From the NCBI GenBank assembly GCA_963457665.1, contig OY735211.1, positions 65,656,985 through 65,720,984 on the forward strand: a stretch of DNA of 64,000 nucleotides. Direction: 5' to 3'. Source of the DNA: Thysanoteuthis rhombus. Taxonomy: Eukaryota; Mollusca; Cephalopoda; Oegopsida; Thysanoteuthidae. Shown one piece after another: positions 19,681 through 60,657 of this stretch (the first letter of the stretch is position 1; the number at the start of each line of letters is the position of its first letter). Below the pieces are notes generated by a model. That model was not told where the DNA came from, did no database searches, and was given only the letters and a program-made list of their open reading frames with translations. The position numbers and the translations under genes are program-made.

Positions 19681-19690
19681 CCCAGTTTAG

Positions 19691-19893: not shown

Positions 19894-22800
19894 GAAATGC
19901 ATTTTCGGCCAATAGCAGCTATTTCCATCAAATTAGGCTGAATCGAAAAATACATCAAATCCACCCGATCCAATGGTACCGTTGCAATCAGCACGTCAAA
20001 CTACGCCAAAAGTAGCCATAAAATCGATAGGTAAAAATGACATTCAAAAGACAATTGTTGACGGCTCACTTATGTATGTGCTGGAAGTGCCTTCTCAACA
20101 TATAGCGGCTATTTCCTTCAAATTGGGCTGAATCGAAAAATACATCAAATCTACCCGATCCAATGATACCGTTGCAATCGGCACGTCAAACTACGACAGA
20201 AAAAGCCATAAAATCGATAGGGAAAAATGACATTCAAAAGACCATTTTTGACGGCTCACTTATGTATGTGGTAAAAATGAATTTTCAGTCAATATTGACT
20301 ATTTCCAACAAATTGGGCTGAATCAAAAAATACATCAAATCCACCCGATCTAATGGTACTGTTGCAATCAGCACGTCAAAATACGCCAGAAAAAGCCATA
20401 AAATCGATAGGTAAAAATGACATTCAAAAGACCATTTTTGACGGATCACTTATGTATGCAGTAAAAATGCATTTTCGGTCGATATTGACTATTTCCAACA
20501 AATTGGCTGAATCAAAAAATACATCAAATCCACCCGATCTAATGGTACCGTTGCAATCAGCACGTCAAAATACGCCAGAAAAAGCCATAAAATCGATAGG
20601 TAAAAATGACATTCAAAAGACCATTTTTGACGGCTCAATCATGTATGTGCCGGAAGTGCATTTTCGACCAATAGCGGCTATTTCCATCAAATTGGGCTGA
20701 ATCAAAAAATACATCAAATCCACCCGATCCAATGGTACCGTTGCAATCAGCACGTCAATCTACGCCAGAAAAAGCCATAAAATCGATAGGTAAAAATGAC
20801 ATTCAAAAGACCATTTGTGACGGCTCACTTATGTATGCGGTAAAAATGCATTTTTGGTCAATATTGGCTATTTCCATCAAATTGGGCTGAATCGAAAATT
20901 CAACAAATCCACCCGATCCAATGGTACCATTGCAATCAGCACGTCAAACTACGCCAGAAAAAGCCATAAAATCGATAGGTAAAAATGACATTCAAAAGAC
21001 CATTTTTGACGGCTCACTTATGTATGCAGTAAAAATGCATTTTCGGTCAATATTGGCTATTTCCATCAAATTGGGCTGAATCGAAAAATACATCAAATCC
21101 ACCCGATCCAATGGTACCGTTGCAATCAGCACGTCAATCTACGCCAGAAAAAGCCATAAAATCAATAGGTAAAAATGACATTCAAAAGACCATTTTTGAC
21201 GGCTCAATTATGTATGCAGTAAAAATGCATTTTCGGTCGATATTGACTATTTCCAACAAATTGGCTGAATCAAAAAATACATCAAATCCACCCGATCTAA
21301 TGGTACCGTTGCAATAAGCACGTCAAACTACGCCAGAAAAAGCCATAAAATCGATAGGTAAAAATGACATTCAAAAGACCATTTGTGACGGCTCACTTAT
21401 GTATGCGATAAAAATGCATTTTTGGTTAATATTGGCTATTTCCATAAAATTGGGCTGAATCGAAAATACATCAAATCCACCCGATCCAATGGTACCGTTG
21501 CAATCAGCACGTCAATCTACGCCAGAAAAAGCCATAAAATCGATAGGTAAAAATGACATTCAAAAGACCATTTTTGATGGCTCACTTATGTATGTGCCGG
21601 AAGTGTATTCTCGACCAATAGCGGCTATTTTCATCAAATTGGGTTGAATCGAAAAATACATATTATCCACCCGATCCAATGGTACCGTTGCAATCAGCAC
21701 GTCAAACTACGCCAGAAAAAGCCATAAAATCGATAGGTAAAAATGACATTCAAAAGACCATTTTTGACGGCTCACTTATGTAGTCAGTAAAAATGCATTT
21801 TTGGTCAATATTGGCTATTTCCATCAAATTGGGCTGAATCAAAAAATACATCAAATCCACCCGATCCAATGGTACCGTTGCAATCCGCACATCAATCTAC
21901 GCCAGGAAAAGCCATAAAATCGATAGGTAAAAATGACATTCAAAGAACCATTTTTGACAGCTCACTTATGTGTGCAGTAAAAATGCATTTTTGATCGATA
22001 TTGACTATTTCCAACAAATTGGGCTGAATCAAAAAATACATCAAATCCACCCGATCTAATGGTACCGTTGCAATCAGCACGTCAAACTACGCCAGAAAAA
22101 GCCATAAAATTGATAGGTAAAAATGACATTCAAAAGACCATTTTTGACGGCTCAATCATGTATGTGCCTGAATTGCATTTTCGACCAATAGCAGCTATTT
22201 CCATCAAATTGGGCTGAATCAAAAAATACATCAAATCCACCCGATCCAATGGTACCGTTGCAATCAGCACGTCAATCTACGCCAGAAAAAGCCATAAAAT
22301 CGATAGGTAAAAATGACATTCAAAAGACCATTTGTGACGGCTCAATCATGTATGTGCCGGAAGTGCATTTTCGACCAATAGCAGCTATTTCCATCAAATT
22401 GGGCTGAATCGAAAATACATCAAATCCACCCGATCCAATGGTACCGTTGCAATCAGCACGTCAATCTACGACAGAAAAAGCCATAAAATCGATAGGTAAA
22501 AATGACATTCAAAAGACCATTTTTGATGGCTCACTTATGTATGTGCCGGAAATGTATTCTCGACCAATAGCGGCTATTTTAATCAAATTGGGTTGAATCG
22601 AAAAATACATCAAATCCACCCGATCCAATGGTACCGTTGCAATCAGCACGTCAAACTACGCCAGAAAAAGCCATAAAATCGATAGGTAAAAATGACATTC
22701 AAAAGACCATTTTTGACGGCTCACTTATGTAGTCAGTAAAAATGCATTTTTGGTCAATATTGGCTATTTCCATCAAATTGGGCTGAATCAAAAAATACAT

Positions 22801-25800
22801 CAAATCCACCCGATCCAATGGTACCGTTGCAATCCGCACATCAATCTACGCCAGAAAAAGCCATAAAATCGATAGGTAAAAATGACATTCAAAGAACCAT
22901 TTTTGACGGCTCACTTATGTGTGCAGTAAAAATGCATTTTTGATCGATATTGACTATTTCCAACAAATTGGGCTGAATCAAAAAATACATCAAATCCACC
23001 CGATCTAATGGTACCGTTGCAATCAGCACGTCAAACTACGCCAGAAAAAGCCATAAAATTGATAGGTAAAAATGACATTCAAAAGACCATTTTTGACGGC
23101 TCAATCATGTATGTGCCTGAATTGCATTTTCGACCAATAGCAGCTATTTCCATCAAATTGGGCTGAATCAAAAAATACATCAAATCCACCCGATCCAATG
23201 GTACCGTTGCAATCAGCACGTCAATCTACGCCAGAAAAAGCCATAAAATCGATAGGTAAAAATGACATTCAAAAGACCATTTGTGACGGCTCAATCATGT
23301 ATGTGCCGGAAGTGCATTTTCGACCAATAGCAGCTATTTCCATCAAATTGGGCTGAATCGAAAATACATCAAATCCACCCGATCCAATGGTACCGTTGCA
23401 ATCAGCACGTCAATCTACGCCAGAAAAAGCCATAAAATCGATAGGTAAAAATGACATTCAAAAGACCATTTTTGATGGCTCACTTATGTATGTGCCGGAA
23501 ATGTATTCTCGACCAATAGCGGCTATTTTCATCAAATTGGGTTGAATCGAAAAATACATCAAATCCACCCGATCCAATGGTACCGTTGCAATCCGCACAT
23601 CAATCTACGCCAGGAAAAGCCATAAAATCGATAGGTAAAAATGACATTCAAAGAACCATTTTTGACGGCTCACTTATGTAGTCAGTAAAAATGCATTTTT
23701 GGTCAATATTGGCTATTTCCATCAAATTGGGCTGAATCAAAAAATACATCAAATCCACCCAATCCAATGGTACCGTTGCAATCCGCACATCAATCTACGC
23801 CAGGAAAAGCCATAAAATCGATAGGTAAAAATGACATTCAAAGAACCATTTTTGACGGCTCACTTATGTGTGCAGTAAAAATGCATTTTTGATCGATATT
23901 GACTATTTCCAACAAATTGGGCTGAATCAAAAAATACATCAAATCCACCCGATCTAATGGTACCGTTGCAATCAGCACGTCAAACTACGCCAGAAAAAGC
24001 CATAAAATTGATAGGTAAAAATGACATTCAAAAGACCATTTTTGGAGGCTCAATCATGTATGTGCTGGAAGTGCATTCTCGACAAAAAGCGGCTATTTCA
24101 TCAAATTGGGCTGAATCGAAAACTACATCAAATCCACCCAATCCAATGGTACAGTTGCAATCAGCACGTCAAAATACGCCAGAAAAAGCCATAAAATCGA
24201 TAGGGAAAAATGACATTCAAAAGACCATTTTTGACGGCTCACTTATGTATGTGGTAAAAATGAATTTTCAGTCAATATTGACTATTTCCAACAAATTGGG
24301 CTGAATCAAAAAATACATCAAATCCACCCGATCTAATGGTACTGTTGCAATCAGCACGTCAAAATACGCCAGAAAAAGCCATAAAATCGATAGGTAAAAA
24401 TGACATTCAAAAGACCATTTTTGACGGATCACTTATGTATGCAGTAAAAATGCATTTTCGGTCGATATTGACTATTTCCAACAAATTGGCTGAATCAAAA
24501 AATACATCAAATCCACCCGATCTAATGGTACCGTTGCAATCAGCACGTCAAAATACGCCAGAAAAAGCCATAAAATCGATAGGTAAAAATGACATTCAAA
24601 AGACCATTTTTGACGGCTCAATCATGTATGTGCCGGAAGTGCATTTTCGACCAATAGCGGCTATTTCCATCAAATTGGGCTGAATCAAAAAATACATCAA
24701 ATCCACCCGATCCAATGGTACCGTTCCAATCAGCACGTCAATCTACGCCAGAAAAAGCCATAAAATCGATAGGTAAAAATGACATTCAAAAGACCATTTT
24801 TGACGGCTCACTTATGTAGTCAGTAAAAATGCATTGTTGGTCAATATTGGCTATTTCCATCAAATTGGGCTGAATCGAAAATACAACAAATCCACCCGAT
24901 CCAATGGTACCGTTGCAATTAGCACGTCAAACTACGCCAGAAAAAGCCATAAAATCGATAGGTAAAAATGACATTCAAAAGACCATTTTTGACAGCTCAC
25001 TTATGTATGCAGTAAAAATGCATTTCCGGTCAATATTGGCTATTTCCATCAAATTGGGCTGAATCGAAAAATACATCAAATCCACCCGATCCAATGGTAC
25101 CGTTGCAATCAGCACGTCAATCTACGCCAGAAAAAGCCATAAAATCGATAGGTAAAAATGACATTCAAAAGACCATTTTTGACGGCTCAATTATGTATGC
25201 AGTAAAAATGCATTTTCGGTCGATATTGACTATTTCCAACAAATTGGCTGAATCAAAAAATACATCAAATCCACCCGATCTAATGGTACCGTTGAAATGA
25301 GCACGTCAAACTACGCCAGAAAAAGCCATAAAATCGATAGGTAAAAATGACATTCAAAAGACCATTTGTGACGGCTCACTTATGTATGCGATAAAAATGC
25401 ATTTTTGGTTAATATTGGCTATTTCCATAAAATTGGGCTGAATCGAAAATACATCAAATCCACCTGATCCAATGGTACCGTTGCAATCAGCACGTCAATC
25501 TACGCCAGAAAAAGCCATAAAATCGATAGGTAAAAATGACATTCAAAAGACCATTTTTGACGGCTCAATCATGTATGTGCCGGAAGTGCATTTTTGACCA
25601 ATAGCAGCTATTTCCATCAAATTGGGCTGAATAAAAAATACATCAAATCCACCCGATCCAATGGTACCGTTGCAATCAGCACGTCAATCTACGCCAGAAA
25701 AAGCCATAAAATCGATAGGTAAAAATGACATTCAAAAGACCATTTGTGACAGCTCAATCATGTATGTGCCGGAAGTGCATTTTCGACCAATAGCAGCTAT

Positions 25801-27640
25801 TTCCATCAAATTGGGCTGAATCGAAAATACATCAAATCCACCCGATCCAATGGTACCGTTGCAATCAGCACGTCAATCTACGCCAGAAAAAGCCATAAAA
25901 TCGATAGGTAAAAATGACATTCAAAAGACCATTTTTGATGGCTCACTTATGTATGTGCCGGAAGTGTATTCTCGACCAATAGCGGCTATTTTCATCAAAT
26001 TGGGTTGAATCGAAAAATACATCAAATCCACCCGATCCAATGGTACCGTTGCAATCAGCACGTCAAACTACGCCAGAAAAAGCCATAAAATCGATAGGTA
26101 AAAATGACATTCAAAAGACCATTTTTGACGGCTCACTTATGTAGTCAGTAAAAATGCATTTTTGGTCAATATTGGCTATTTCCATCAAATTGGGCTGAAT
26201 CAAAAAATACATCAAATCCACCCGATCCAATGGTACCGTTGCAATCTGCACATCAATCTACGCCAGAAAAAGCCATAAAATCGATAGGTAAAAATGACAT
26301 TCAAAGAACCATTTTTGACGGCTCACTTATGTGTGCAGTAAAAATGCATTTTTGATCGATATTGACTATTTCCAACAAATTGGGCTGAATCAAAAAATAC
26401 ATCAAATCCACCCGATCTAATGGTGCCGTTGCAATCAGCACGTCAAACTACGCCAGAAAAAGCCATAAAATTGATAGGTAAAAATGACATTCAAAAGACC
26501 ATTTTTGAAGGCTCAATCATGTATGTGCTGGAAGTGCATTCTCGACAAAAAGCGGCTATTTAATCAAATTGGGCTGAATCGAAAAATACATCAAATCCAC
26601 CCGATCCAATGGTACAGTTGCAATCAGCACGTCAAAATACGCCAGAAAAAGCCATAAAATCGATAGAAAAAATGACATTCAAATGACCATTTTTGACGGC
26701 TCACTTATGTATGCGGTAAAAATGCATTTTTGGTCAATATTGGCTATTTCCATCAAATTGGGCTGAATCGAAAAATACATCAAATCCACCCGATCTAATG
26801 GTACCGTTGCGATTAGCACGTCAAACTACGCCAGAAAATGCCATAAAATCGATAGGTAAAAATGACATTCAAAAGACCATTTTTGACGGCTCACTTATGT
26901 ATGCGGTAAAAATGCATTTTCGGTCAATATTGGCTATTCTCATCAAATTGGGCTGAATCGAAAAATACATCAAATCTACCCGATCCAATGGTACCGTTGC
27001 AATCAGCACGTCAAACTACGCCAGAAAAAGCCATAAAATCGATAGGTAAAAATGACATTCAAAAGACCATTTTTGACGGCTCACTTATGTAGTCAGTAAA
27101 AATGCATTTTTGGTCAATATTGGCTATTTCCATCAAATTGGGCTGAATCAAAAAATACATCAAATCCACCCGATCCAATGGTACCGTTGCAATCCGCACA
27201 TCAATCTACGCCAGAAAAAGCCATAAAATCGATAAGTAAAAATGACATTCAAAAGACCATTTTTGACGGCTCACTTATGTGTGCAGTAAAAATGCATTTT
27301 TGATCGATATTGACTATTTCCAACAAATTGGGCTGAATCAAAAAATACATCAAATCCACCCGATCTAATGGTGCCGTTGCAATCAGCACGTCAAACTACG
27401 CCAGAAAAAGCCATAAAATTGATAGGTAAAAATGACATTCAAAAGACCATTTTTGAAGGCTCAATCATGTATGTGCTGGAAGTGCATTCTCGACAAAAAG
27501 CGGCTATTTAATCAAATTGGGCTGAATCGAAAAATACATCAAATCCACCCGATCCAATGGTACAGTTGCAATCAGCACGTCAAAATACGCCAGAAAAAGC
27601 CATAAAATCGATAGGGAAAAATGACATTCAAATGACCATT
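19894..27640 (+). repeat. Array sector 1: distinct monomer subfamily
   Basis: This sector is marked by variants rare elsewhere: AATCAAAAAATACATC, GATCTAATGG, CGTCAATCTACGCC, GGCTCAATCATGTATGTGCC, and TATGTAGTCAGTAAAAATG. A block from about 20211 to 21500 recurs near-identically at 24194-25480 (offset 3983 bp, 21 monomers minus 7 bp). From about 27640 onward, type-B monomers with CGGCTATTTTCATC become common. Confidence 0.85.
21580..24050 (+). repeat. Five-monomer higher-order repeat, period about 949 bp
   Basis: The sequence of variant blocks GTGCCGGAAGTGTATTCTCG, TAGTCAGTAAAAATGC, TGTGCAGTAAAAATGC, TGCCTGAATTGCATTTTCG, TGCCGGAAGTGCATTTTCG appears in order. It starts near 21594, 22541 and 23490 (the last copy is incomplete), with shorter versions near 25953 and 27093. 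The TGCCTGAATTGC marker at about 22160 and 23109 gives a 949-bp period. Confidence 0.88.
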
Positions 27641-30600
27641 TTTGACGGCTCACTTATGTGTGTGCTGGGAGTGCCTTCTCAACCAATAGCGGCTATTTTC
27701 ATCAAATTGAGCTGAATCGAAAAATACATCAAATCCACCCGATCCAATGGTACCGTTGCAATCAGCACGTCAAACTACGCCAGAAAAAGCCAGAAAATCG
27801 ATAGGTAAAAATGACATTCAAAAGACCATTTTTGACGGCTCACTTATGTATGTGCTGGAAGTGACTTCTCGACCAATAGCGGCTATTTTCATCAAATTGG
27901 GCTGAATCGAAAAATACATCAAATCCACCCAATCCAATTGTACCGTTGCAATAAGCACGTCAAACTACGCCAGAAAAAGCCATAAAATCGATAGGTAAAA
28001 ATGACATTCAAAAGACCATTTGTGACGGCTCACTTATGTATGTGCTGGAAGTGCCTTCTCGACCAATAGCGGCTATTTTCATCAAATTCGGCTTAATCGA
28101 AAAATACATGATATCTACTCGATCCAATGGTACCGTTGCAATCAGCACGTCAAACTACGCCAGAAAAAACCATAAAAGCGATAGGTAAAAATGACATTCA
28201 AAAGACCATTTCTGACAGCTCACTCATGTATGCGGTAAAAATGCCTTTTTGGTCAATATTGGCTATTTCCATCAAATTGGGTTGAATCGAAGAATACATC
28301 AAATCCACCCGATCCAATGGTACCGTTGCAATCGGCTCGTCAAACTACGCCAGAAGAAGCCATAAAATCGATAGGTAAAAATGACATTCAAAAGACCATT
28401 TTTGACGGATCACTTATGTGTGCAGTAGAAATGCATTTTTGGTCAATATTGGCTATTTCCATCAAATTGGGCTGAATCGAAAAATACATCAAATCCACCC
28501 GATCCAATGGTACCGTTGCAATCAGCATGTCAAACTACGCCAGAAAAAGCCATAAAATCGATAGGTAAAAATGACATTCAAAAGACCATTTTTGACGGCT
28601 CACTTATGTATGTGCTGGAAGTGCCTTCTCGACCAATAGCGGCTATTTTCATCAAATTGGGCTGAATCGAAAAATACATCAAATCCACCCGATCCAATGG
28701 TACCGTTGCAATCAGCACGTCAAACTACGCCAGAAAAAGCGTTAAAATCGATAGGTAAAAATGACATTCAAAAGATCATTTGTGACGGCTCACTTATGTA
28801 TGTGCTGGAAGTGCTTTCTCGACCAATAGCGGCTATTTTCATCAAATTTGACTGAATCGAAAAATACATCAAATCCATCCGATCCAATGGTACCGTTGTA
28901 ATCAGTACGTCAATCTACGCCAGAAAAAGCCATAAAATCGATATGTAAAAATGACATTCAAAAGACCATTTTTGACGGCTCACTTATGTATGAGCTGGAA
29001 GTGCCTTCTCGACCAATAGCGGCTATTTTAATCAAATTGGGCTGAATCGAAAAATACATCAAATCCACCCGATCCAATAATACCGTTGCAATCAGCACGT
29101 CAAACTACGCCAGAAAAAGCCATAAAATCGATGGGTAAAAATGACATTCAAAAGACCATTTTTGACGGCTCACTTATATATGCAGTGAAAATGCATTTTC
29201 AGTCAATATTGGCTATTTCCATCAAATTGGGCTGAATTGAAAAATACATCAAATCCACCCGATCCAATGGTACCGTTGCAATCAGCACGTCAAACTACAC
29301 CAGAAAAAGCCATAAAATCGATAGATAAAAAAAAATGACATTCAAAAGACCATTTTTGACGGCTCACTTATGTATGTGCTGGAAGTGCCTTCTCGACCAA
29401 TAGCAGCTATTTTCATCAAATTTGACTGAATCGAAAAATACATCAAATCCACCCGATCCAATGGTACCGTTGCAATCAGCACGTCAAACAACGCCAAAAA
29501 AAGCCATAAAATCGATAGGTAAAAATGACATTCAAAAGACCATTTGTGACGGCTCACTTATGTATGTGCTGGAAGTGCCTTCTCGACCAATAGCGGCTAT
29601 TTTCATCAAATTGGGCTGAATCGAAAAATACATCAAATCCACCCGATCCAATGGTACTATTGCACTCAGCACGTCAAACTACGCCAGAAAAAGCCATAAA
29701 ATCGATAGGTAAAAATGACATTCAAAAGACCATTTTTGACAGCTCACTTATGTATGCGGTAAAAATGCATTTCCGGTCAATATTGGCTATTTCCATCAAA
29801 TTGGGCTGAATCGAAAAATACATCAAATCCACCCTATCCAATGGTACCGTTGCAATCAGCACGTCAAACTACGCCAGAAAAAGCCATAAAATCGATAGGT
29901 CAAAATTACATTCAAAAGACCATTTGTGACGGCTCACTTATGTATGCGGTAAAAATGCATTTTTGGTCAATATTGGCTATTTTCATCAAATTGGGCTGAA
30001 TCGAAAAATACATCAAATCCACCCGATCCAATGGTACCGTTGCAATCAGCACGTCAAACTACGCCAGAAAAAGCCATAAAATCGACAGGTAAAAATGTTA
30101 TTCAAGAGACCATTTGTGACAGCTCACTTATGTATGTGCTGGAAGTGCCTTCTCGACGAATAGCGGTTATTTTCATCAAATTAGGCTGAATCGAAAAATA
30201 CATCAAATCCAACCGATCCAACGGTACCGTTGCAATCAGCACGTCAAACTACGCCAGAAAAAGCCATAAAATCGATAGGTAAAAATGACATTCAAAAGAC
30301 CATTTTTGAGGGCTTACTGATGTGTGCGGTGAAAATGCATTTTCGGTCAATATTGGCTATTTCCATCAAATTGGGCTTAATCAAAAAATACATCAAATCC
30401 ACCCGATCCAATGGTACCGTTGCAATCAGCACGTCAAACTACGCCAGAAAAAGCCATAAAATCGATTGGTAAAAATGACATTCAAAAGACCATTTTTGAC
30501 GGCTCACTTATGTATGCGGTAAAAATGCATTTCCGGTCAATATTGGCTATTTCCATCAAATTGGGTTGAATCGAAAAATACATCAAATCCACCCGATCCA

Positions 30601-33600
30601 ATGGTACCGTTGCAATCAGCACGTCAAACTACGCCAGAAAAAGCCATAAAATCGATAGGTAAAAATGACATTCAAAAGACCATTTGTGACGGCTCACTTA
30701 TGTATGTGCTGGAAGTGCCTTCTTGACCAATAGCAGCTATTTTCATCAAATTGGGCTGAATCGAAAAATACATCAAATCCACCCGATCCAATGGTACCGT
30801 TGCAATCAGCACGTAAAACTACGCCAGAAAAAGACATAAAATCGATAGGTAAAAATGACATTCAAAAGACCATTTGTGACGGCTCACTTATATATGCGGT
30901 AAAATGCATTTTCAGTCAATATTGGCTATTTCCATCAAATTGGGCTGAATCGAAAAATACATCAAATCCACCCGATCCAATGGTACCGTTGCAATCAGCA
31001 CGTCAAACTACGCCAGAAAAGCCATAAAATCGATAGGTAAAAATGACATTCAAAAGACCATTGGGAAGGGTCATTTATGCGTGCGGTAAAAATGCATTTT
31101 CGGTCAATATTGGCTATTTCCATCAAATTCGGCTGAATCAAAAAATACATCAAATCCATCCGGTCCAATGGTACTGTTGCAATCAGCACGTCAAACTACG
31201 CCAGAAAAAGCCAAAAAATCGACAGGTAAAAATGACATTCAAAAGACCATTTTTGACGGCTCACTTATATATGCGGTAAAAATGCATTTTCAGTCAATAT
31301 TGGCTATTTCCATCAAATTGGGCTTAATCGAAAAAATACATCAATCCATCCAATCCAATGGTACCGTTGCAATCAGCACGTTAAACTACCTCAGAAAAAG
31401 CCAAAAAATCGATAGGTAAAAATGACATTCAAAAGACCATTTTTGACGGCTCACTTATGTATGTGCTGGAAGTGCCTTCTTGACCAATAGTGGCTATTTT
31501 CATCAAATTCGGCTGAATCGAAAATTACATCAAATCCACCCGATCCAATGGTTCCGTTGCAATCAGCACGTCAAACTACGCCAGAAAAAGCCATAAAATC
31601 GATAGGTAAAAATGACATTCAAAAGACCATTCGTGACAGCTCACTTATGTATGCGGTAAAAATGCATTTTCGGTCAATATTAGCTACTTCCATCAAATTG
31701 GGCTGAATTGAAAAATACATCAAATCCACCCGATCCAATGGTACCGTTGCAATCAGCACGTCAAACTACGCCAGAAGAAGCCATAAAATCGATAGGTAAA
31801 AATGACATTCAAAAGACCATTTTTGACGGCTCACTTATGTGTGCAGTAGAAATGCATTTTTGGTCAATATTGGCTATTTCCATCAAATTGGGCTGAATCG
31901 AAAATTACATCAAATCCACCCGATCCAATAGTACCGTTGCAATCAGCACGTCAAACTACGCCAGAAAAAGCCATAAAATCGATAGGTAAAAATGACATTC
32001 AAAAGACCATTTTTGACGGCTCACTTATGTATGTGCTGGAAGTGCCTTCTCGACCAATAGCGGCTATTTTCATCAAATTGGGCTGAATCGAAAAATACAT
32101 CAAATCCACCCGATCCAATGGTACCGTTGCAATCAGCACGTCAAACTACGCCAGAAAAAGCCATAAAATTGATAGGTAAAAATGACATTCAAAAGACCAT
32201 TTTTGACGGCTCACTTATGTATGCGGTAAAAATGCATTTTCGGTCAATATTGGCTATTTCAATCAAATTGGGTTGAATCGAAAAATACATCAAATCCACC
32301 CGATCCAATGGTACCGTTGCAATCGGCTCGTCAAACTAAGCCAGAAAAAGCCATGAAATCGATGGGTAAAAATGACATTCAAAAGACCATTTTTGACGGC
32401 TCACTTATGTATGCAGTAAAAATGCATTTTCGGTCGATATTGACTATTTCCAACAAATTGGGCTGAATCAAAAAAAAAATCAAATCCACCCGATCTAATG
32501 GTACCGTTGAATCAGCACGTCAAACTACGCCAGAAAAAGCCATAAAATTGATAGGTAAAAATGACATTCAAAAGACCATTTTTGACGGCTCAATCATGTA
32601 TGTGCTGGAAGTGCATTCTCGACAAAAAGTGGCTATTTCATCAAATTGGGCTGAATCGAAAAATACATCAAATCCACCCGATCCAATGGTACAGTTGCAA
32701 TCGGCACGTCAAACTACGCCAGAAAAAGCCATAAAATCGATAGGGAAAAATGACATTCAAATGACCATTTTTGACGGCTCACTTATGTATGCAGTAAAAA
32801 TGCATTTTCGGTCAATATTGGCTATTTCCATCAAATTGGGCTGAATCGAAAAATACATCAAATCCACCCGATCCAATGGTACCATTGCAATCAGCACGTC
32901 AAACTACGCCAGAAAAAGCCATAAATTCGATAGGTAAAAATGACATTCAAAAGACCATTTTTGACGGCTCACTTATGTATGTGCTGGAAGTGCCTTCTCG
33001 ACCAATAGCGGCTATTTTCATCAAATTCGGCTGAATCGAAAAATACATCAAATCCACCCGATCCAATGATACCGTTGCAATCAGCACGTCAAACTACGCC
33101 AGAAAAAGCCATAAAATCGATAGGTAAAAATGACATTCAAAAGACCATTTTTGAGGGCGTACTGATGTGTGCGGTGAAAATGCATTTTCGGTCAATATTG
33201 GCTATTTCCATCAAATTGGGCTGAATCGAAAAAATACATCAAATCCACCCTATCCAATGGTACCGTTGCAATCAGCACGTCAAACTACGCCAGAAAAAGC
33301 CATAAAATCGATTGGTAAAAATGACATTCAAAAGACCATTTTTGACGGCTCACTCATGTGTGTGCTGGGAGTGCCTTCTCAACCAATAGCGGCTATTTTC
33401 ATCAAATTGAGCTGTATCGAATAATACATCAAATCCACCCGATCCAATGGTACCGTTGCAATCAGCACGTCAAACTACGCCAGAAAAAGCCATAAAATCG
33501 ATAGGTAAAAATGACATTCAAAAGACCATTTTTGACGGCTCACTTATGTATGTGCTGGAAGTGCCTTCTTGACCAATAGCGGCTATTTTCACCAAATTGG

Positions 33601-47600: not shown

Positions 47601-48549
47601 GGCTCACTTATGTATGTGCTGGAAGTGCCTTCTCGACCAATAGTGGCTATTTCCTTCAAATTAGGTTGAATCGAAAAATACATCAAATCCACCCGGTCCA
47701 ATGGTACCGTTGCAATCAGAACGTCAAACTACGCCAGAAAAAGCCATAAAATCGATGGGTAAAAATGACATTCAAAAGACCATTTTTGACAGCTCACTTA
47801 TGTATGCGGTAAAGATGCTTTTTCGGTCAATATTGGCTATTTCAATCAAATTGGGCTGAATCGAAAAATACATCAAATCCACCCGATCCAATGGTACCGT
47901 TGCAATCAGCACGTCAAACTACGCCAAAAAAAGCCATAAAATCGATAAGTAGAAATGACATTCAAAAGATCATTCGTGACGGCTCACTTATGTATGTGCT
48001 GGAAGTGCCTCTTCGACGAATAGCAGCTATTTTATTCAAATTGGGCTGAATTGAAAAATACATCAAATCCACCCGATCCAATGGTACCGTTGCAATCAGC
48101 ACGTCAAACTACGCCAGAAAAAGCCATAAAATCGATAGGTAAAAATGACATTCAAAAGACCATTTTTGACGGCTCACTTATATATGCGGTAAAAATGCTT
48201 TTTCAGTCAATATTGGCTATTTCCATCAAATTTGGCTGAATCGAAAAATACATCGAATCCACCCGATCCAATGGTACCGTTGCAATCAGCACGTCAAACA
48301 ACGCCAGAAAAAGCCATAAAATCGATAGGTAAAAATGACATTCAAAAGACCATTGGTGACGGCTCACTTATGTATCCAGTAAAAATGCATTTTTGGTCAA
48401 TATTGGCTATTTCCATCAAATTGGGCTTAATCGAAAAATATATCAAATCCACCCGATCAAATGGTACTGTTGCAATCAGCACGTCAAACTACGCCAGAAA
48501 AAGCCATAAAATCGATAGGTAAAAATGACATTCAAAAGACCATTTTTGA

Positions 48550-49689: not shown

Positions 49690-52329
49690 CGGCTCACTTA
49701 TGTATGCAGTAAAAATGCATTTTCGGTCAATATTGGCTATTTCAATCAAATTGGGCTGAATCGAAAAATACATCAAATCCACCCGATCCAATGGTACCGT
49801 TGCAATCAGCACGTCAAACTATGCAAGAAAAAGCCATAAAATCGATAGGTAAAAATGACATTCAAAAGACCATTTTTGACGGCTCACTTATGTATGTGCT
49901 GGAAGTGCCTTCTCGACCAATAGCGACTATTTTCATCAAGAATTGGGCTGAATCGAAAAATACATCAAATCCACCCGATCCAATGGTACCGTTGCAATCA
50001 GCACGTCAAACTACGCCAGAAAAAGCCATAAAAGCGATAGATAGAAATGACATTCAAAAGACCATTTTTGACGGCTCACTTATGTATGTGCTGGAAGTGC
50101 CTTCTCGACCAATATCGGCTATTTTCATCAAATTGGGCTGAATCGAAGAATACATCAAATCCACCCGATCCAATGGTACTGTTGCAATCAGCACGTCAAA
50201 CTACGCCAGAAAAAGCCATAAAATCGATAGGTAAAAATGACATTCAAAAGATCATTTTTGACGGCTCACTTATGTATGTGCTTGACGTGCCTTCTCGACC
50301 ATGAGCAGCTATTTTCATCAAATTGGGCTGAATCGAAAAATACATCTAATCCACCCGATCCAATGGTACCGTTGCAATCAGCACGTCAAACTACGCCAGA
50401 AAAAGCCATAAAATCGATAGGTAAAAATGACATTCAAAAGATCATTTGTGACAGCTCACTAATGTATGCGGTTAAAATGCATTCTCGGTCAATATTGGCT
50501 ATTTCCATCAAATTAGGCTGAATCGAAAAATACATCAAATCCACCCGATCCAATGGTACTGTTGCAATTAGCACGTCAAACTACGCCAAAAAAAGCCATA
50601 AAATCGATAGGTAAAAATGACATTCTAAAGACCATTTTTAAGGGCTCACTTATGTATTTTTTGGAAGTGCCTTCTCGACGAATAGCGGCTATTTTCATCA
50701 AATTGGGCTGAATCGAAAAATACATCAAATCCACCCGATCCAATGGTACAGTTGCAATCAGCACGTCAAACTACGCCAGAAAAAGCCATAAAATTGATAG
50801 GTAAAAATGACATTCAAAAGAACATTTTTGACGGCTCACTTATGTATGTGCTGGAAGAGCCTTCTCGACCAATAGCGGCTTTTTTCATCATTTTGGGCTG
50901 AATCGAAAAATACATCAAATCCACCCGATCCAATGGTACCGTTGCAATCAGCACGTCAAACTACGCCAGAAAAAGCCATAAAATCTATATGTAAAAATGT
51001 CATTCAAAAGAACATTTTGACGGCTCACTTATGTATGTGCTGGAAGTGCCTTCTCGACCAATAGCGGCTTTTTTCATTGCATTGGGCTGAATCGAAAAAT
51101 ACATCAAATCCACCCGATCCAATGGTACCGTTGCAATCAGCACGTCAAACTACGCCAGAAAAAGCCATAAAATCGATTGGTAAAAATGACATTCAAAAGA
51201 TCATTTTTGACGGCTCACTTATGTATGTGCTGGAAGTGCCTTCTCGACCATGAGCGGCTATTTTCATCAAATTGGGCTGAATCGAAAAATACATCAAATC
51301 CACCCGATCCAATGGTACTGTTGCAATCAGCACGTCAAACTACGCCAAAAAAGCCATAAAATCGATAGGTAAAAATGACATTCAAAAGACCATTTTTGAC
51401 GGCTCACTTATGTATGTTTCGGAAGTTTCTTCTCGACGAATAGCGGCTATTTTTATCAAATTGGGCTGAATCGAAAAATACATCAAATCCACAGGATCCA
51501 ACGGTATCGTTTCAATCAGCACGTCAAACTACGCCAGAAAAAGCCATAAAATCGATAGGTAAAAATGACATTCAAAAGACCATTTTTGATGGCTCACTTA
51601 TGTAGGTGCTGGAAGTGCAATCTCGACCAATAGCGGCTATTTTCATCAAATTGGGCTGAATTCAAAAATACATCAAATCCACCCGATCCAATGGTACCGT
51701 TGCAATCAGCACGTCAAACTACGCCAGAAAAAGCCATAAAATCGATAGGTAAAAATGACATTCAAAAGATCATTTGTGACAGCTCACTGATGTATGCGGT
51801 AAAAATGCATTCTCGGTCAATATTGACTATTTCCATCAAATTGGGCTGAATCGAAATATACATCAAATCCACCCGATCCAATGGTACCGTTGCAATTAGC
51901 ACGTCAAACTATGCCAGAAAAGGCCATAAAATCGATAGGTAAAGATGACATTCTAAAGACCATTTTTAATGGCTCACTTATGTATGTTTTGGAAGTGCCT
52001 TCTCGACGAATAGCGGCTATTTTCATCAAATTGGGCTGAATCGAAAAATACATCAAATCCAACCGATCCAATGGTACCGTTGCAATCAGCACGTCAAACT
52101 ACGCCAGAAAAAGCCATAAAATCGATAGGTAAAAATGACATTCAAAAGACCATTTGTGACGGCTCACTTATGTATGTGCTGGAAGTGCCTTCTCGACCAA
52201 TAGCGGCTATTTTCATCAAATTGGGCTGAATCGAAAAATACATCAAATCCACCCGATCCGATGGTACCGTTGCAATCAGCACGTCAAACTACACCAGAAA
52301 AAGCCATAAAATCGATAGGTAAAAATGAC

Positions 52330-55300
52330 ATTCAAAAGACCATTTGTGACGGCTCACTTATGTATGCGGTAAAGATGCATTTTCGGTCAATATTGGCTAT
52401 TTCCATCAAATTGGGCTTAATAGAAAAATACATCAAATCCACCCGATCAAATGGTACCGTCGCAATCAGCATGTCAAACTATGCAAAAAAGGCATAAAAT
52501 CGATAGGTAAAAATGACATTCAAAAGACCATTTTTGATGGCACACTTATGTATGTGCTGGAAGTGCCATCTCGACCAATAGCGGCTATTTTATCAAATTG
52601 GGCTGAATCGAAAAATACATCAAATCCACCCGATCCAATGGTACCGTTGCAATCAGCACGTCAAACTACGCCAGAAAAAGCCATAAAATCGATAGGTAAA
52701 AATGACATTCAAAAGACCATTTTTGACGGCTCACTTATGTATGCGGTAAAAATGCATTTTCGGTCAATATTGGCTATTTCAGTCAAAATGGGCTGAATCG
52801 AAAAATACATCAAATCCACCCGATCCAATGGTACTTGCAATCAGCACGTCAAACTACGCCAGAAAAAGCCATAAAATCGATAGGTAAAAATGACATTCAA
52901 AAGACCATTTTTGACAGCTCACTTATGTATGTGCTGGAAGTGCCTTCTCGACGAATAGCTGCTATTTTAATCAAATTGGGCTGAATCGAAAAATACATCA
53001 AATCCACCCGATCCAATGGTACCGTTGCAATCAGCACGTCAAACAACGCCAGAAAAAGCCATAAAATCGATAGGTAAAAATGACATTCAAAAGACCATTG
53101 GTGATGGCTCACTTATGTATGTGCTGGAAGTGCCTTCTCGACCAATAGCGGCTATTTCCATCAAATTGGGCTGAATCGAAAAATACATCAAATCCACCCG
53201 GTTCAATAGTACAGTTGCAATCAGCACGTCAAACTACACCAGAAAAAGCCATAAAATCGATAGGTAAAAATGACATTCAAAAGACCATTTTTGACGGCTC
53301 ACTGATGTATGCAGTGAAAATGCATTTTCGGTCAATATTGGCTATTTCAATCAAATTGGGTTGAATCAAAAAATACATCAAATCCACCCGATCCAATGGT
53401 ACCGTTGCAATCAGCACGTCAAACAACGCCAGAAAAAGCCATGAAATCGATAGGTAAAAATGACATTCAAAAGACCATTTTTGACGGCTCACTTATGTAT
53501 GTGCTGGAAGTGCTTTCTCGACCAATAGCGGCTATTTTCATCAAATTGGGCTGAATCGAAAAATTCATCAAATCTACCCGATCCAAAGGTACTGTTGCAA
53601 TCAGCACGTCAAACTACGCCAGAAAAAGCCATGAAATCGATAGGTAAAAATGACATTCAAAAGACCATTTTTGACGGCTCACTGATGTATGCAGTGAAAA
53701 TGCATTTTCGGTCAATATTGGCTATTTCAATCAAATTGGGTTGAATCAAAAAATACATCAAATCCACCCGATCCAATGGTACCGTTGCAATCAGCACGTC
53801 AAACTACGCCAGAAAAAGCCATAAAATCGATAGGTAAAAATGACATTCAAAAGACCATTTTTGACGGCTCACTTATGTATGTGCTGGAAGTGCCTTCTCG
53901 ACCAATATTGGCTATTTGCATCAAATTGGGCTGAATCAAAAATAAATCAAATCCACCGGATCTAATGGTACCGTTGCAATCAGCAAGTCAATTTACGCGA
54001 GAAAAAGCCATAAAATCGATAGGTAAAAATGACATTCAAAAGACCATTTGTGACGGCTCACTTATGTATGCGGTAAAAATGCATTTTCGGTCAATATTGG
54101 CTATTTCCATCAAATTGGGCTGAATCGAAAAATACATCAAATCCACCCAATCCAATGGTACCGTTGAAATCAGCACGTCAAACTACGCCAGAAAAAGACA
54201 TAAAATCGACAGGTAAAAATGACATTCAAAAGACCATTTTTGACGGCTCACTTATGTATGTGCTGGAATTGCCTTCTTGACCAATAGCAGCTATTTTCAT
54301 CAAATAGGGCTGAATCGAAAAATACATAAAATCCACCCGGTCCAACGGTACCGTTGCAATCAGCACGTCAAACTACGCCAGAAAAAGCCATAAAATCGAT
54401 AGGTAAAAATGACATTCAAAAGACCATTGGTGACGGCTCACTTATGTATGCGGTAAAAATGCATTTCCGGTCAATATTGGCTATTTCCATCATATTGGGC
54501 TGAATCGAAAAATACATCAAATCCATCCGGTCCAATGGTACCGTTGTAATCAGCACGTCAAACTACGCCAGAAAAAGCCATAAAATCGATGGGTAAAAAT
54601 GACATTCAAAAGACCATTTTTGATGGCTCTCTTATATATGCAGTAAAAATGCTTTTTTGGTCAATATTGGCTATTTCAATCAAATTGGGCTGAATCGAAA
54701 AATACATCAAATCCACCCGATCCAATGGTACCGTTGCAATCAGCACGTCAAACTACGCCAGAAAAAGCCATAAAATCGATATGTAAAAATGACATTCAAA
54801 AGACCATTTTTGACGGCTCACTTATGTATGTGCTGGAAGTGCCTTCTCTACCAATAGCGGCTATTTCCATCAAGTTGGGCTGAATCGAAAAATACATCAA
54901 ATCCACCCGGTCCAATGGCACCGTTGCAATCAGCACGTCAAACTACGCCAGAAGAAGCCATAAAATCGATGGGTAAAAATGACATTCAAAAGACCATTTG
55001 TGACGGCTCACTTATGTATGCGGTAAAGATGCATTTTCGGTCAATATTGGCTATTTCCATCAAATTGGGCTGAATAGAAAAATACATCAAATCCACCCGA
55101 TCAAATGGTACCGTCGCAATCAGCATGTCAAACTATGCAAAAAAGGCATAAAATCGATAGGTAAAAATGACATTCAAAGACCATTTTTGATGGCACACTT
55201 ATGTATGTGCTGGAAGTGCCATCTCGACCAATAGCGGCTATTTTATCAAATTGGGCTGAATCGAAAAATACATCAAATCCACCCGATCCAATGGTACCGT

Positions 55301-55350
55301 TGCAATCAGCACGTCAAACTACGCCAGAAAAAGCCATAAAATCGATAGGT
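52330..55350 (+). repeat. Paired block about 2653 bp apart in the array
   Basis: Rare linked variants (CGATCAAATGGTACCGTCGC, ACTATGCAAAAAAGGCATAA, GATGGCACACTTATG, CTATTTTATCAAATTGGG) occur together at 52440-52600 and again at 55095-55250. That is 14 monomers minus 7 bp, showing a segment duplication or exchange at this scale. Confidence 0.85.
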
Positions 55351-58300
55351 AAAAATGACATTCAAAAGACCATTTTTGACAGCTCACTTATGTATGTTTT
55401 GGAAGTGCCTTCTCGACCAATAGCGGCTATTTTCATCAAATTGGGCTGAATCGAAAAATACATCAAATCCACCAGATCCAATGGTACTGTTGCAATCAGC
55501 ACGTCAAACTACGCCAGAAAAAGCCATAAAATCGATAGGTAAAAATGACATTCAAAAGACCATTTTTGATGGCTCACTTTTTTATGTATGCCATTAAAAT
55601 GCATTTTTGGTCAATATTGGCTATTTCAGTCAAATTGGGCTGAATCAAAAAATTCATCAAATCCACCCGATCCAATGGTACCGTTGCAATCAGCACGTCA
55701 AACTACGCCAGAAAAAGCCATAAAATCGATAGGTAAAAATGACATTCAAAAGAACATTTTTGACGGCCCACTTATGTATGTGCTGGAAGTGCCTTCTCGA
55801 CGAATAGCGGCTATTTTCATCAAATTGGGCTGAATTGAAAAATACATCAAATCCACCCAATCCAATGGTACTGTTGCAATCAGCACGTCAAACAACGCCA
55901 GAAAAAGCCATAAAATCGATATGTAAAAAATGACATTCAAAAGACGATTTTTGATGGCTCACTTATGTATGTGCTGGAAGTGCCTTCTCGACCAATAGCA
56001 GCTCTTTCCATCAAATTGGGCTGAATCGAAAAATACATCAAATCAACCCGGTCCAATGGTACCGTTGCAATCAGCACGTCAAAATACGCCACAAAAAGCC
56101 ATAAAATCGATCGGTAAAAATGACATTCAAAAGACCATTTTTGACGGCTCACTTATGTATGCGGTAAAGATGCATTTTTGGTCAATATTGGCTATTTCCA
56201 TCAAATTGGGCTGAATCGAAAAATACATCAAATCCACCCGATCCAATGGGACCGTTGCAATCAGCACGTCAAACTACGCCAGAAAAAGCCATAAAATCGA
56301 TAGGTAAAAATGACATTCAAAAGACCATTTGTAACTCTCACTTATGTATGCAGTAAAAATGCATTTTTGGTCAATATTGGCTATTTCCATCAAATTGGGC
56401 TGAATCGAAAAATACATCAGATCCACCTGATCCAATGGTACCGTTGCAATCAGCACGTCAAACTACGCCAGAAAAAGCCATAAAATCGATAGGTAAAAAT
56501 GACATTCAAAAGATCATTTTTGACGGCTCACTTATGTATGTGCTGGAAGTGCCTTCTCGACCAAGAGCGGCTATTTTAATCAAATTGGACTGAATTGAAA
56601 AATACATCAAATCCACCCGATCCAATGGTACCGTTGCAATCAGCACGTCAAACTACGCCAGGAAAAGCCAAAAAATCGATAGGTAAAAATGACATTCAAA
56701 AGACCATTTGTGACGGCTCACTTATGTATGTGCTGGAAGTGCCTTCTCGAGGAATAGCGACTATTTTCTTCAAATTGGACTGAAATGAAAAATACATCAA
56801 ATCCACCCGATCCAATGGTACCGTTGCAATCAGCACGTCAAACTACGCTCGAAAAAGCCATAAAATCGATAGGTAAAAATGACATTCAAAAGACCATTTG
56901 TGACTCTCATTTATGTATGTTTTGGAAGTGCCTTCTCGACGAATAGCGGCTATTCTCATCAAATTAGGCTGAATCTAAAAATTCATCAAATCCACCCTAA
57001 CCAATGGTACTGTTGCAATCAGCACGTCAAACTACGCCAGAAAAAGCCATAAAATCGATAGGTAAAAATGACATTCAAAAGACCATTGGTGACGGCTCAC
57101 TTATGTATGAGGTAAAAATGCATTTTTGGTCAATATTGGCTATTTCCATCAAATTGGGCTAAATCGAAGAATACATCAAATCCACCTGATCCAATGGTAC
57201 CGTTGCAATCAGCACGTCAAACTACGCCAGAAAAAGCCATAAAATCGATAGGTAAAAATGACATTAAAAGACCATTGGTGACGGCTCACTTATGTATGAG
57301 GTAAAAATGCATTTTTGGTCAATATTGGCTATTTCCATCAAATTGGGCTAAATCGAAGAATACATCAAATCCACCTGATCCAATGGTACCGTTGCAATCA
57401 GCACGTTAAACTACGCCAGATATAGCCATAAAATCGATAGGTAAAAATGACAGTCAAAAGACCATTGGTGACGGCTCACTTATGTATGAGGTAAAAATGC
57501 ATTTTTGGTCAATATTGTCTATTTCCATCAAGTTGGGCTTAATCGAAAAATACATCAAATCCACCCGATCCAATGGTACCGTTGCAATCAGCACGTCAAA
57601 CTACGCCAGGAAAAGCCAAAAAATCGATAGGTAAAAATGACAATTAAAAGACCCTTTTTGACGGCTGACTTATGTGTGTTCTGGAAATGCCTTCTCGACC
57701 AATAGCGGCTATTTCCATCAAATTGGGCTGAATCGAAAAATACATCAAATCCACCCGGTCCAATGGTACCGTTGCAATCAGCACGTCAAACTACGCCACA
57801 AAAAGCCATAAAATCGATCGGTAAAAATGACATTCAAAAGACCATTTTTGACGGCTCACTTATGTATGCGGTAAAGATGCATTTTTGGTCAATATTGGCT
57901 ATTTCCATCAAATTGGGCTGAATCGAAAAATACATCAAATCCACCCGATGCAATGTGACCGTTGCAATCAGCACGTCAAACTACGCCAGAAGAAGCCATA
58001 AAATCGATAGGTAAAAATGACATTCAAAAGACCATTTTTGACGGCTCACTTATGTATGCAGTAAAAATGCCTTTTTGGTCAATATTGGCTATTTCCATCA
58101 AATTGGGCTGAATCGAAAAATACATCAGATCCACCTGATCCAATGGTACAGTTGCAATCAGCACGTCAAACTACGCCAGAAAAAGCCATAAAATCGATAG
58201 GTAAAAATGACATTCAAAAGACCATTTGTGACGGCTCACTTATGTATTTGCTGGAAGTGCCTTCTCGAGGAATAGCGACTATTTTCTTCAAATTGGACTG

Positions 58301-58694
58301 AATTGAAAAATACATCAAATCCACCCGATCCAATGGTACCGTTGCAATCAGCACGTCAAACTACGCCAGAAAAAGCCATAAAATCGATAGGTAAAAATGA
58401 CATTCAAAAGACCATTTGTGACGGCTCACTTATTTATGTTTTAGAAGTGCCTTCTCGACCAATAGCGGCTATTTCCATCAAATTGGGCTGAATCGAAAAA
58501 TACATCAAATCCACCCGATCCAGTGGTACTGTTGCAATCAGCACGTCAAACTACGCCAGAAAAAGCCATAAAATCGATAGGTAAAAATGACATTCAAAAG
58601 ACCATTTTTGACGGCTCACTTATGTATGCGGTAAAGATGCATTTTCGGTCAATATTGGCTATTTCCATCAAATTGGGCTGAATCGAAAAATACA

Positions 58695-60214
58695 TCAAAT
58701 CCACCCGATCCAATTGTACTGTTGCAATCAGTACGTCAAACTACGCCAGAAAAAGCCATAAAATCGATAGGTAAAAATGACATTCAAAAGACCATTTTTG
58801 ACGGCTCACTTATGTATGTGCTGGAAGTGCCTTCTCGACCAATAGCAGCTATTTTCATCAAATTGGGCTGAATCGAAAAATACATCAAATCTACCCGATC
58901 CAATGGTACCGTTGCAATCAGCACGTCAAACTCCGCCAGAAAAAGCCATAAAATCGATAGGTAAAAATAACATTCAAAAGATCATTTTTGACAGCTCGCT
59001 TATGTATGTGCTGGAAGTGCCTTCTCGACCAATATTGGCTATTTTCATCAAATTGGGCTGAATCGAAAAATACATCAAATCCACCCGGTCCAATGGTACC
59101 GTTGCAATCAGCAAGTCAAACCACGCCAGAAAAAGCCATAAAATCGATAGGTAAAAATGACATTCAAAAGACCATTTTTGACAGCTCACTTATGTATGTG
59201 CTGGAAGTGCCTTTTCGACCAATAGCGGCTATTTTCATCAAATTTGGCTGAATCGAAAAATACATCGAATCCACCCGATCCAATGGTACCGTTGCAATCA
59301 GCACGTCAAACTACGCCAGAAAAAGCCATAAAATCGATAGGTAAAAATGACATTCAAAAGACCATTTTTGATGGCTCACTTATGTATGCGGTAAAAATGC
59401 ATTTTCGGTCAATATTGGCTATTTCCATCAAATTGGGCTGAATCGAAAAATACATCAAATCCACCCGATCCAATTGTACTGTTGCAATCAGTACGTCAAA
59501 CTACGCCAGAAAAAGCCATAAAATCGATAGGTAAAAATGACATTCAAAAGACCATTTTTGACGGCTCACTTATGTATGTGCTGGAAGTGCCTTCTCGACC
59601 AATAGCAGCTATTTTCATCAAATTGGGCTGAATCGAAAAATACATCAAATCTACCCGATCCAATGGTACCGTTGCAATCAGCACGTCAAACTCTGCCAGA
59701 AAAAGCCATAAAATCGATAGGTAAAAATAACATTCAAAAGATCATTTTTGACAGCTCGCTTATGTATGTGCTGGAAGTGCCTTCTCGACCAATATTGGCT
59801 ATTTTCATCAAATTGGGCTGAATCGAAAAATACATCAAATCCACCCGGTCCAATGGTACCGTTGCAATCAGCAAGTCAAACCACGCCAGAAAAAGCCATA
59901 AAATCGATAGGTAAAAATGACATTCAAAAGACCATTTTTGACAGCTCACTTATGTATGTGCTGGAAGTGCCTTTTCGACCAATAGCGGCTATTTTCATCA
60001 AATTTGGCTGAATCGAAAAATACATCAAATCCACCCGATCCAATGGTACCGTTGCAATCAGCACGTCAAACTACGCCAGAAAAAGCCATAAAATCGATAG
60101 GTAAAAATGACATTCAAAAGACCATTTTTGATGGCTCACTTATGTATGCGGTAAAAATGCATTTTCGGTCAATATTGGCTATTCCCATCAAATTGGGCTG
60201 AATCGAAAAATACA
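58695..60214 (+). repeat. Four-monomer duplication, period 760 bp, at array edge
   Basis: 58695-59454 and 59455-60214 differ by only about three or four substitutions (for example CTCCGCC versus CTCTGCC, and TACATCGAATCC versus TACATCAAATCC). Shared rare variants include CAATTGTACTGTTGC, AATAACATTCAAAAG and CAAGTCAAACCACGCC. This is among the most recent events visible, about 300 bp from the array end. Confidence 0.93.
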
Positions 60215-60530
60215 TCAAATCCACCCGATCCAATGGTACCATTGCAATCAGCACGTCAAACTACGCCAGAAAAAGCCATAAAATCGATAGGTAATAATGA
60301 CATTCAAAAGACCATTTTTGACGGCTCACTTATGTATGCGGTAAAAATGCATTTTCGGTCAATATTGGCTATTTCCATCAAATTGGGCTGAATCGAAAAA
60401 TACATCAAATCCACCCGATCCAATGGTACCGTCGCAATCAGCATGTCAAACTACGCCAGGAAAAGCCATAAAATCGATAGGTAAAAATGACATTCAAAAG
60501 ACTATTTTTGATGGCTGACTTATGTATCAT

Positions 60531-60617
60531 ATATGTGTGTGTATGTGTGTGTGTTGGACTCTATCTGTTCATATATGTATGTTTATATTTATCACTTCTA
60601 CTCTCTTTCTCTTCAAG

Positions 60618-60654
<37 letters not shown>

Positions 60655-60657
60655 TTA
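60531..60657. repeat. TG and TA microsatellites (right copy)
   Basis: (TG)n with a TA interruption near 60534-60553 and an interrupted (TA)n at about 60620-60655. Length and interruptions differ from the left copy at 1519-1640. Confidence 0.9.

What the first reader, a model, noticed from the sequence alone, without database searches (positions are those of the whole stretch)
19894..60527. A 40.6-kb pure satellite array with alpha-satellite-like organisation
Seen: about 214 head-to-tail 190-bp monomers without any foreign insertion, organised into local higher-order repeats of 3, 4, 5, 7, 10 and 11 monomers. Established: large homogeneous arrays with higher-order repeats are typical of centromeric satellites in several lineages. 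Inference: this may be a centromeric or pericentromeric satellite of the species. The monomer resembles no named family I can recall.
Basis: partly seen in the sequence, partly recalled or inferred. Interest (0 to 1): 0.8.

Follow-up and report, generated by a model that had tools for sequence, protein, structure and literature searches.

The report
Squid chromosome-end satellite with two-state box
The window holds a long, pure DNA repeat block near the end of a squid-like chromosome; its 190-bp units come in two kinds that differ almost only in one 37-bp box, much as the units of primate centromere DNA do, although the block's location speaks for chromosome tips rather than for centromeres.

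Summary
The array is real: 213 consecutive complete 190-bp monomers, no foreign insert, local multi-monomer duplications above a permutation null. The genome (2.73 Gb; 46 chromosome-size contigs; molluscan hemocyanin) looks decapodiform. In the places listed, the satellite lies at 28 of 92 chromosome ends, on 25 of 46 chromosomes, within 1.15 Mb of an end, none internal, mostly with one polarity towards the telomere. Three chromosomes carry it at both ends, as random ends would give (P(<=3)=0.33), and five published decapodiform karyotypes are mostly (sub)metacentric. I read it as a subtelomeric satellite; the centromere reading is weakened, not excluded. Unexpectedly, monomers fall into two classes that differ almost only in a 37-bp box: between-class Fst 0.55 inside, 0.02 outside; of 860 monomers 432 and 400 are in the two states, 28 between. 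Both states occur in 11 of 13 other contigs sampled. This repeats the AB-box logic of primate alpha satellite, without a CENP-B box. Whether the box binds proteins or is kept two-state by conversion mechanics is open; boxes are not more conserved than the rest.

The parts
19889..60527 (+). Main satellite array: 213 complete head-to-tail monomers of modal length 190 bp, 112 with box 1 and 101 with box 2
1..1515 (+). Right end of the preceding array of the same satellite (whole array 39.5 kb, C14:65619017-65658499)
20079..20115 (+). Example of box 2 (consensus columns 50-86) in the first complete monomer, which starts at 20030
20269..20305 (+). Example of box 1 (consensus columns 50-86) in the second monomer, which starts at 20220; the consensus box 1 (not this copy) holds the palindrome AAAATGCATTTT
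1516..19888 (.). Spacer between two arrays: a mosaic of segments duplicated nearby, mostly at 91-98%, with a degenerate reverse transcriptase fragment at 12577-13053 (+)
60528..64000 (.). Start of the next spacer; 60401-64000 matches 1390-4941 at 96.8%; the junction piece 60528-61300 recurs near ends of C15, C29, C42 and C45
2723..4206 (+). Degenerate ~170-bp tandem family, a distant relative of the 190-bp monomer (up to 84% over 74 bp)
61745..63229 (+). Second copy of the degenerate ~170-bp family (61745-63229 by the matches, 62074-62552 by Tandem Repeats Finder)

Best explanation
This is one block of a subtelomeric satellite of a decapodiform cephalopod. Shown: arrays of a 190-bp monomer lie in clusters spread over up to about 0.9 Mb just inside many chromosome ends, set among recently duplicated spacers; monomers on different chromosomes are about as alike as monomers on one chromosome; polarity relative to the telomere is mostly constant; and the monomers exist in two states that differ almost only in a 37-bp box. 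Inferred: chromosome ends exchange terminal pieces by unequal crossing over, conversion or break-induced copying directed towards the telomere. That would spread and homogenise the satellite between non-homologous ends, keep its polarity and build the local higher-order repeats. The arrays would act as constitutive heterochromatin that caps or buffers the ends. Exchange reshuffles everything outside the box, while the two box states are kept apart. I think it most likely (about 50:50 against a purely mechanical cause) that they are alternative sites for one or two satellite-binding proteins, as the A and B boxes of alpha satellite are.
For: Location: every satellite place listed in eight genome searches lies in a small contig or within 1.15 Mb of an end of a chromosome-size contig (tally): 28 ends on 25 of 46 chromosomes. 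Three pattern lists were complete (55, 28 and 97 places). Both ends on C17 (51-56 kb and 16-30 kb from the ends), C44 (47-99 kb and 35-38 kb) and C29 (1.13-1.15 Mb and 0.27-0.72 Mb); expected for random ends 4.15, P(<=3)=0.33. Telomere repeats stand at the array-bearing contig ends of C14 and C28, C15 and C22, degenerate ones at C4. Polarity, tallied by eye from those listings: 22 ends uniform (C5, C41 and C43 from one place each), 1 opposite, 5 mixed; sign test on 22 of 23, 5.7e-6. Mean identity outside the box is 0.88-0.98 between contigs and 0.88-0.99 within. Spacer pieces recur near other ends, including the C45 end where no satellite place was listed. Box.
Against: There is no chromatin or cytological evidence. 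At telocentric chromosomes a centromeric satellite would also lie beside a telomere. Most chromosomes with the satellite (22 of 25) show it at one end only, although the count of both-ended ones fits chance. Most lists are partial: searches scored 40 candidates of 4743, 2671 and 4028; one search listed 100 of 2295 places; one search listed 100 of 170. So internal copies of other variants are not excluded. Some both-ended cases could be scaffolding errors, and C29's left site is 1.13 Mb inside. Not everything is shared freely: C30 is a distinct homogeneous variant, and C45 and C497 are alike and more homogeneous (0.97-0.98). Against protein binding: the boxes diverge slightly more from their class consensus than the rest does (window 0.050 and 0.064 against 0.037 and 0.033), so no purifying constraint is visible.
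Confidence: 0.6

Rival explanations
1. The satellite is the centromere of telocentric or acrocentric chromosomes: CENP-A nucleosomes sit on the terminal arrays, as on mouse minor satellite (recalled).
For: 190-bp A+T-rich monomers, tens of kilobases without inserts, local higher-order repeats, a two-state box like the alpha-satellite AB box (PMC9549924 passages), one end only on 22 of 25 chromosomes, five contig ends lying inside the satellite (C30; C9, C12, C21, C29), polarity mostly constant towards the telomere.
Against: C17, C29 and C44 carry it at both ends, as many as chance gives. It was not listed on 21 of 46 chromosomes (lists partial). Five decapodiform species have 77.8% metacentric plus submetacentric chromosomes (PMC5646656 passages), so about 10 of 46 chromosomes, not 25, should have terminal centromeres; none of the five is an oegopsid and the source species here is unknown. 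No CENP-B box.
Confidence: 0.22
2. On the separate question of the box: the two states are a by-product of recombination mechanics. Two old monomer lineages exchanged freely except where they differed by about 30%, because heteroduplexes over the box are rejected; no protein is involved and the frequencies drift.
For: Boxes are not more conserved than the rest. State frequencies vary widely between arrays: C4 20 box 1 and 5 intermediate of 25, C30 26 of 26 box 2, C15 25 to 3. In the main array the order of states is random (103 switches, 106 expected).
Against: Both states persist in 11 of 13 other contigs sampled, box divergence is about six times the diversity outside, and over 13 arrays or samples neighbours alternate more than chance (382 switches, 336 expected, z 3.7), though local duplications make that z too large.
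Confidence: 0.45
3. Assembly artefact: collapsed or misjoined satellite reads.
For: Five contig ends lie inside the satellite, so arrays are incompletely assembled.
Against: 213 ordered monomers with local duplications, a junction to spacer repeated at a second place at 96.8%, and telomere repeats at both ends of C14. Both box classes recur in 11 of 13 other contigs sampled.
Confidence: 0.03

Closest known systems
Primate alpha satellite (171-bp monomers, AB-box; PMC9549924, passages)
   Same: Head-to-tail monomers of nucleosomal length, local multi-monomer repeats, and two monomer types that mostly differ in one narrow region: 17 bp there, 37 bp here. Two older flanking arrays are more diverged and skewed to one type here.
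   Different: No CENP-B box above chance. Chromosome-end location with both ends on three chromosomes. No general chromosome-specific subfamilies, no array-wide higher-order repeat. Different phylum.
Subtelomeric satellites in general (class recalled, no family matched)
   Same: Terminal location beside (TTAGGG)n, presence on many non-homologous ends, polarity mostly towards the telomere, duplicated spacer pieces shared between ends.
   Different: A two-state box with free exchange around it is not something I can recall for this class; not checked against a repeat library, which is not on hand.
Mouse minor satellite on telocentric chromosomes (recalled)
   Same: Terminal block with uniform orientation beside a telomere.
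   Different: The mouse block is at one end of each chromosome and binds CENP-A; here three chromosomes have both ends and CENP-A is untested.

Membership tests
Subtelomeric satellite | Arrays lie just inside chromosome ends, near telomere repeats | tested here: met
   All satellite places listed (several of these lists partial) are in small contigs or within 1.15 Mb of an end; telomere repeats at array-bearing contig ends of C14, C28, C15, C22, degenerate at C4
Subtelomeric satellite | Occurs at many ends without a one-per-chromosome rule | tested here: met
   28 ends, 25 chromosomes, 3 both-ended; expected 4.15 at random, P(<=3)=0.33
Centromeric satellite | One locus per chromosome | tested here: not met
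   Both ends on C17, C29, C44; none listed on 21 of 46 chromosomes, with partial lists
Centromeric satellite | CENP-A or CENP-C chromatin on the array | not testable with these tools
   No chromatin data; a CENP-C_C family search found 0 matches in the genome and is uninformative
Primate alpha satellite | Two monomer types that differ mainly in one narrow box | tested here: met
   Fst 0.555 in box and 0.018 outside in the main array; 432, 28, 400 of 860 monomers with 0-2, 3-7, 8-12 class-2 letters at 12 sites
Primate alpha satellite | CENP-B box in one monomer type | tested here: not met
   Best 7 of 9 core letters in the mixed consensus (441 of 2000 shuffles reach 7), 7 in class 1 (258 of 1000) and 6 in class 2 (929 of 1000); 0 exact cores on either strand of the array
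Primate alpha satellite | Chromosome-specific, array-wide higher-order repeats | tested here: not met
   Flat identity by lag; between-contig identity about equal to within-contig identity, C30 excepted
Primate alpha satellite | Sequence homology to the 171-bp alphoid monomer | not tested
   No alphoid sequence or repeat library on hand

The most novel reading that the evidence does not exclude
A mollusc has evolved its own AB-box system: a satellite whose monomers carry one of two mutually exclusive 37-bp binding sites, kept apart by selection while everything around them is homogenised between chromosomes. This would be an independent counterpart of the CENP-B/pJalpha box of primate alpha satellite, working at terminal heterochromatin or at the centromeres of some chromosomes.
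Probability: 0.3. Interest if true: 0.8.

Novelty: new variant of a known kind. Interest (0 to 1): 0.52.

Why it matters
The two-type monomer with one switching box is a known feature of alpha satellite, where the box is the binding site of CENP-B or, presumably, pJalpha (PMC9549924, passages). A second, unrelated case in a mollusc would show whether a protein-binding site can steer satellite evolution in general, and here it can be tested directly with two 37-bp probes. It also gives a candidate end-of-chromosome marker for decapodiform cephalopods, for which my searches of the open-access library listed no described satellite.

Tried and rejected
Ribosomal DNA spacer: no Rfam match in window 1-20500, the part searched. 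CENP-B box: chance level. Uniform one-end placement as proof of a centromere: held with the first 20 contigs counted, fell when C17, C29 and C44 proved both-ended and when two contigs counted there (C23, C24) proved to be small. The notebook entry still holds the older count of 24 chromosomes. Strictly uniform polarity: rejected, 5 of 28 ends are mixed and 1 opposite. Array-wide higher-order repeat: rejected. Purifying constraint on the boxes: not seen. Todarodes pacificus as the source: its genome size (2.74 Gb, scaffold N50 62.62 Mb; PMC13076209 passages) is near ours (2.73 Gb, N50 60.6 Mb), but the best hemocyanin match is 92%, not identical; the species of the PDB chain is recalled. Telomere pattern search: listing filled by the start of C1, no use. 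CENP-C family: 0 of 1, uninformative; its controls rang in 4 of 14, none over the cut-off. Pfam scan of 8 spacer ORFs: one reverse transcriptase match below the curated cut-off (23.4 against 29.6 bits) and one weak ENTH match (17.8 against 24). Rows left out: loci L004, L005, L006 and L008 (C497) were not used, and C497 was represented by L002 and L007; L001 and L003 lie in the C14 region already used. One search used L002-L008. The switch test left out C4, C30, the three smaller C14 arrays and intermediate monomers.
Full report
OBSERVATION. The array at 19894-60527 is there as described. Tandem Repeats Finder reports 214.0 copies of period 190. An anchor scan cuts it into 213 complete monomers, all spaced 187-194 bp, with no gap. 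Mean pairwise identity is 0.902. Runs of consecutive monomers repeat at lags 3, 4, 5, 7, 10, 11 and others; the longest run is 8, while 300 permutations of monomer order never exceeded 4. These are local duplications: identity by lag is nearly flat and only four runs are truly tandem, so it is not an array-wide higher-order repeat.

WHERE IT LIES. The window is G000:C14:65656985-65720984 of a 2.73-Gb genome in 514 contigs. C14 is 66.38 Mb long and carries telomere repeats at both ends. Contig lengths, seen, show 46 contigs of 30.5-94.6 Mb (C1-C22 and C25-C48) that hold 99.0% of the assembly; C23, C24 and C49-C51 are under 1 Mb. A molluscan hemocyanin domain gives 52 matches, with 0 of 14 control genomes ringing. 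A fragment of a PDB hemocyanin chain (6r83; species recalled as the squid Todarodes pacificus) finds 92% identity at best. Decapodiforms have about 46 chromosomes (PMC13076209 and PMC12682272, passages). I conclude a decapodiform cephalopod, species unknown.

SURROUNDINGS. The 264 kb read around and including the window hold arrays of the same satellite at C14:65.557-65.562 (+, cut at the left by the stretch read), 65.619-65.658 (+), 65.677-65.718 (+, the finding), 65.751-65.756 (-) and 65.773-65.784 (-). Between them lie mosaics of segments duplicated at 77-99%, mostly above 90%. The two short arrays at 65.557 and 65.751 are older: their monomers differ from the class consensus by about 11% outside the box, against 3-4% in the two long arrays. 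Spacers also hold a degenerate 170-bp relative of the monomer.

GENOME-WIDE DISTRIBUTION. An exact 118-mer of the consensus occurs 2295 times (100 listed); the exact class-2 190-mer 170 times (100 listed); three rarer variants 55, 28 and 97 times, all listed; three DNA searches score the best 40 candidates each. Every listed satellite place is in a small contig or within 1.15 Mb of an end of a chromosome-size contig; none listed is internal, but most lists are partial. The tally is 28 ends on 25 of 46 chromosomes (positions typed from those listings). C17, C29 and C44 have both ends. Random placement of 28 ends would give 4.15 both-ended chromosomes, P(<=3)=0.33, P(0)=0.0024; without the C29 left site, which is 1.13 Mb inside, 2 against 3.86, P(<=2)=0.17. 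Orientation is '-' at left and '+' at right ends in 22 ends, opposite in 1 (C29 left), mixed in 5 (C13, C14, C21, C29 right, C45 left), by my reading of the listings. Copy number is only bracketed: 11 exact 118-mers per 513 monomers in the C14 region and 23 per 313 in twelve loci mostly chosen at hits extrapolate to roughly 107,000 and 31,000 monomers, 20 and 6 Mb.

THE BOX. A scan of columns whose second letter exceeds 20% in the 213 monomers found 13, of which 12 lie in columns 50-86; linkage among these is strong (r2 0.38-1.00) and absent with the thirteenth, column 29. The main array has 112 box-1 and 101 box-2 monomers. Between-class Fst is 0.555 in columns 50-87 and 0.018 outside; between-class divergence is 0.36 in the box and 0.064 outside. 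Over 860 monomers from C14, twelve other large contigs and C497, 432 carry 0-2, 28 carry 3-7 and 400 carry 8-12 of the twelve class-2 letters; shuffled columns give one hump centred on 5. Both states occur in 11 of the 13 other contigs; the C4 sample has box 1 and intermediates only, the C30 sample only box 2 in a homogeneous 181-bp variant. In the main array, at a distance of 11-36 bp and minor-letter frequency of 0.1 or more, mean r2 is 0.44 inside the box (61 pairs) and 0.018 across its edge (24 pairs); only one pair lies wholly outside (0.001), so that control is thin. Consensus box 1 holds a perfect 12-bp palindrome (P 0.012 by shuffling, not corrected for looking at two boxes; box 2 has none).

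READING THE BOX. Exchange outside the box is thorough enough to erase linkage over tens of bases, yet the more divergent box difference stays whole. A recent origin of one box is unlikely, as both states are shared by many contigs and occur, with intermediates, in the two older arrays (16 box 2, 2 box 1 and 5 intermediate of 23; 17, 2 and 5 of 24). Two causes remain: selection for two alternative sites, or rejection of heteroduplexes across 30% divergence. Against selection, the boxes vary slightly more than the rest, and state frequencies differ strongly between arrays. For selection, alternation of states exceeds chance when 13 arrays or samples are pooled (z 3.7), though not in the main array, and local duplications inflate that z. 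I leave it at about even.

CENTROMERE OR CHROMOSOME TIP. [quoted passage not shown] But location speaks for tips: both-ended chromosomes at the rate chance gives, telomere repeats at five array-bearing contig ends (one degenerate), the spacer junction piece also near both ends of C42 and near the C45 end where no satellite was listed, and (sub)metacentric chromosomes making up 77.8% in five decapodiform species, none of them an oegopsid squid (PMC5646656, passage). I give the subtelomeric reading 0.6 and the centromere reading 0.22; the box question is scored apart.

LITERATURE. Passages were seen in PMC13218726, PMC13076209, PMC12682272, PMC9549924, PMC5646656 and PMC6160780 (C-bands in three octopods mostly centromeric, some terminal). 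Term look-ups in PMC9068888 and PMC12407938 for centromer, telomer, metacentric and satellite gave 0 (metacentric and the rest in both). All other papers were seen as listings only. I found no description of this satellite or of a decapodiform centromere satellite in these searches; most subscription papers are not held.

Noticed in passing
window 15000-19800: G+C-rich stretch (49-57%) with internal inverted repeats (17297-17458 against 18347-18508 at 97.5%, and a partly self-complementary 18347-18675) and (TCGA)n, without Rfam match and without Pfam match in the four of its ORFs tested; perhaps a mobile element.
   Followed up: partly
G000:C30:1-5000 (L058): A homogeneous 181-bp variant of the satellite: 26 of 26 monomers box 2, a 9-bp deletion across the left edge of the box, mean identity 0.99 outside the box.
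   Followed up: partly
G000:C25:56607734-56625492: Nine hemocyanin beta-sandwich domains with equal scores, spaced about 2.18 kb: a recent tandem expansion of one hemocyanin functional unit.
   Followed up: no
C14:65.731-65.746 Mb and the start of C32 (L038): A second, A+T-rich tandem repeat of about 97 bp near the satellite cluster of C14, matched at 80-86% by the first bases of C32: another possible end-of-chromosome repeat.
   Followed up: no
window 12577-13053 (+): Degenerate reverse transcriptase fragment (PF00078, E 5.6e-5, below the curated cut-off).
   Followed up: no
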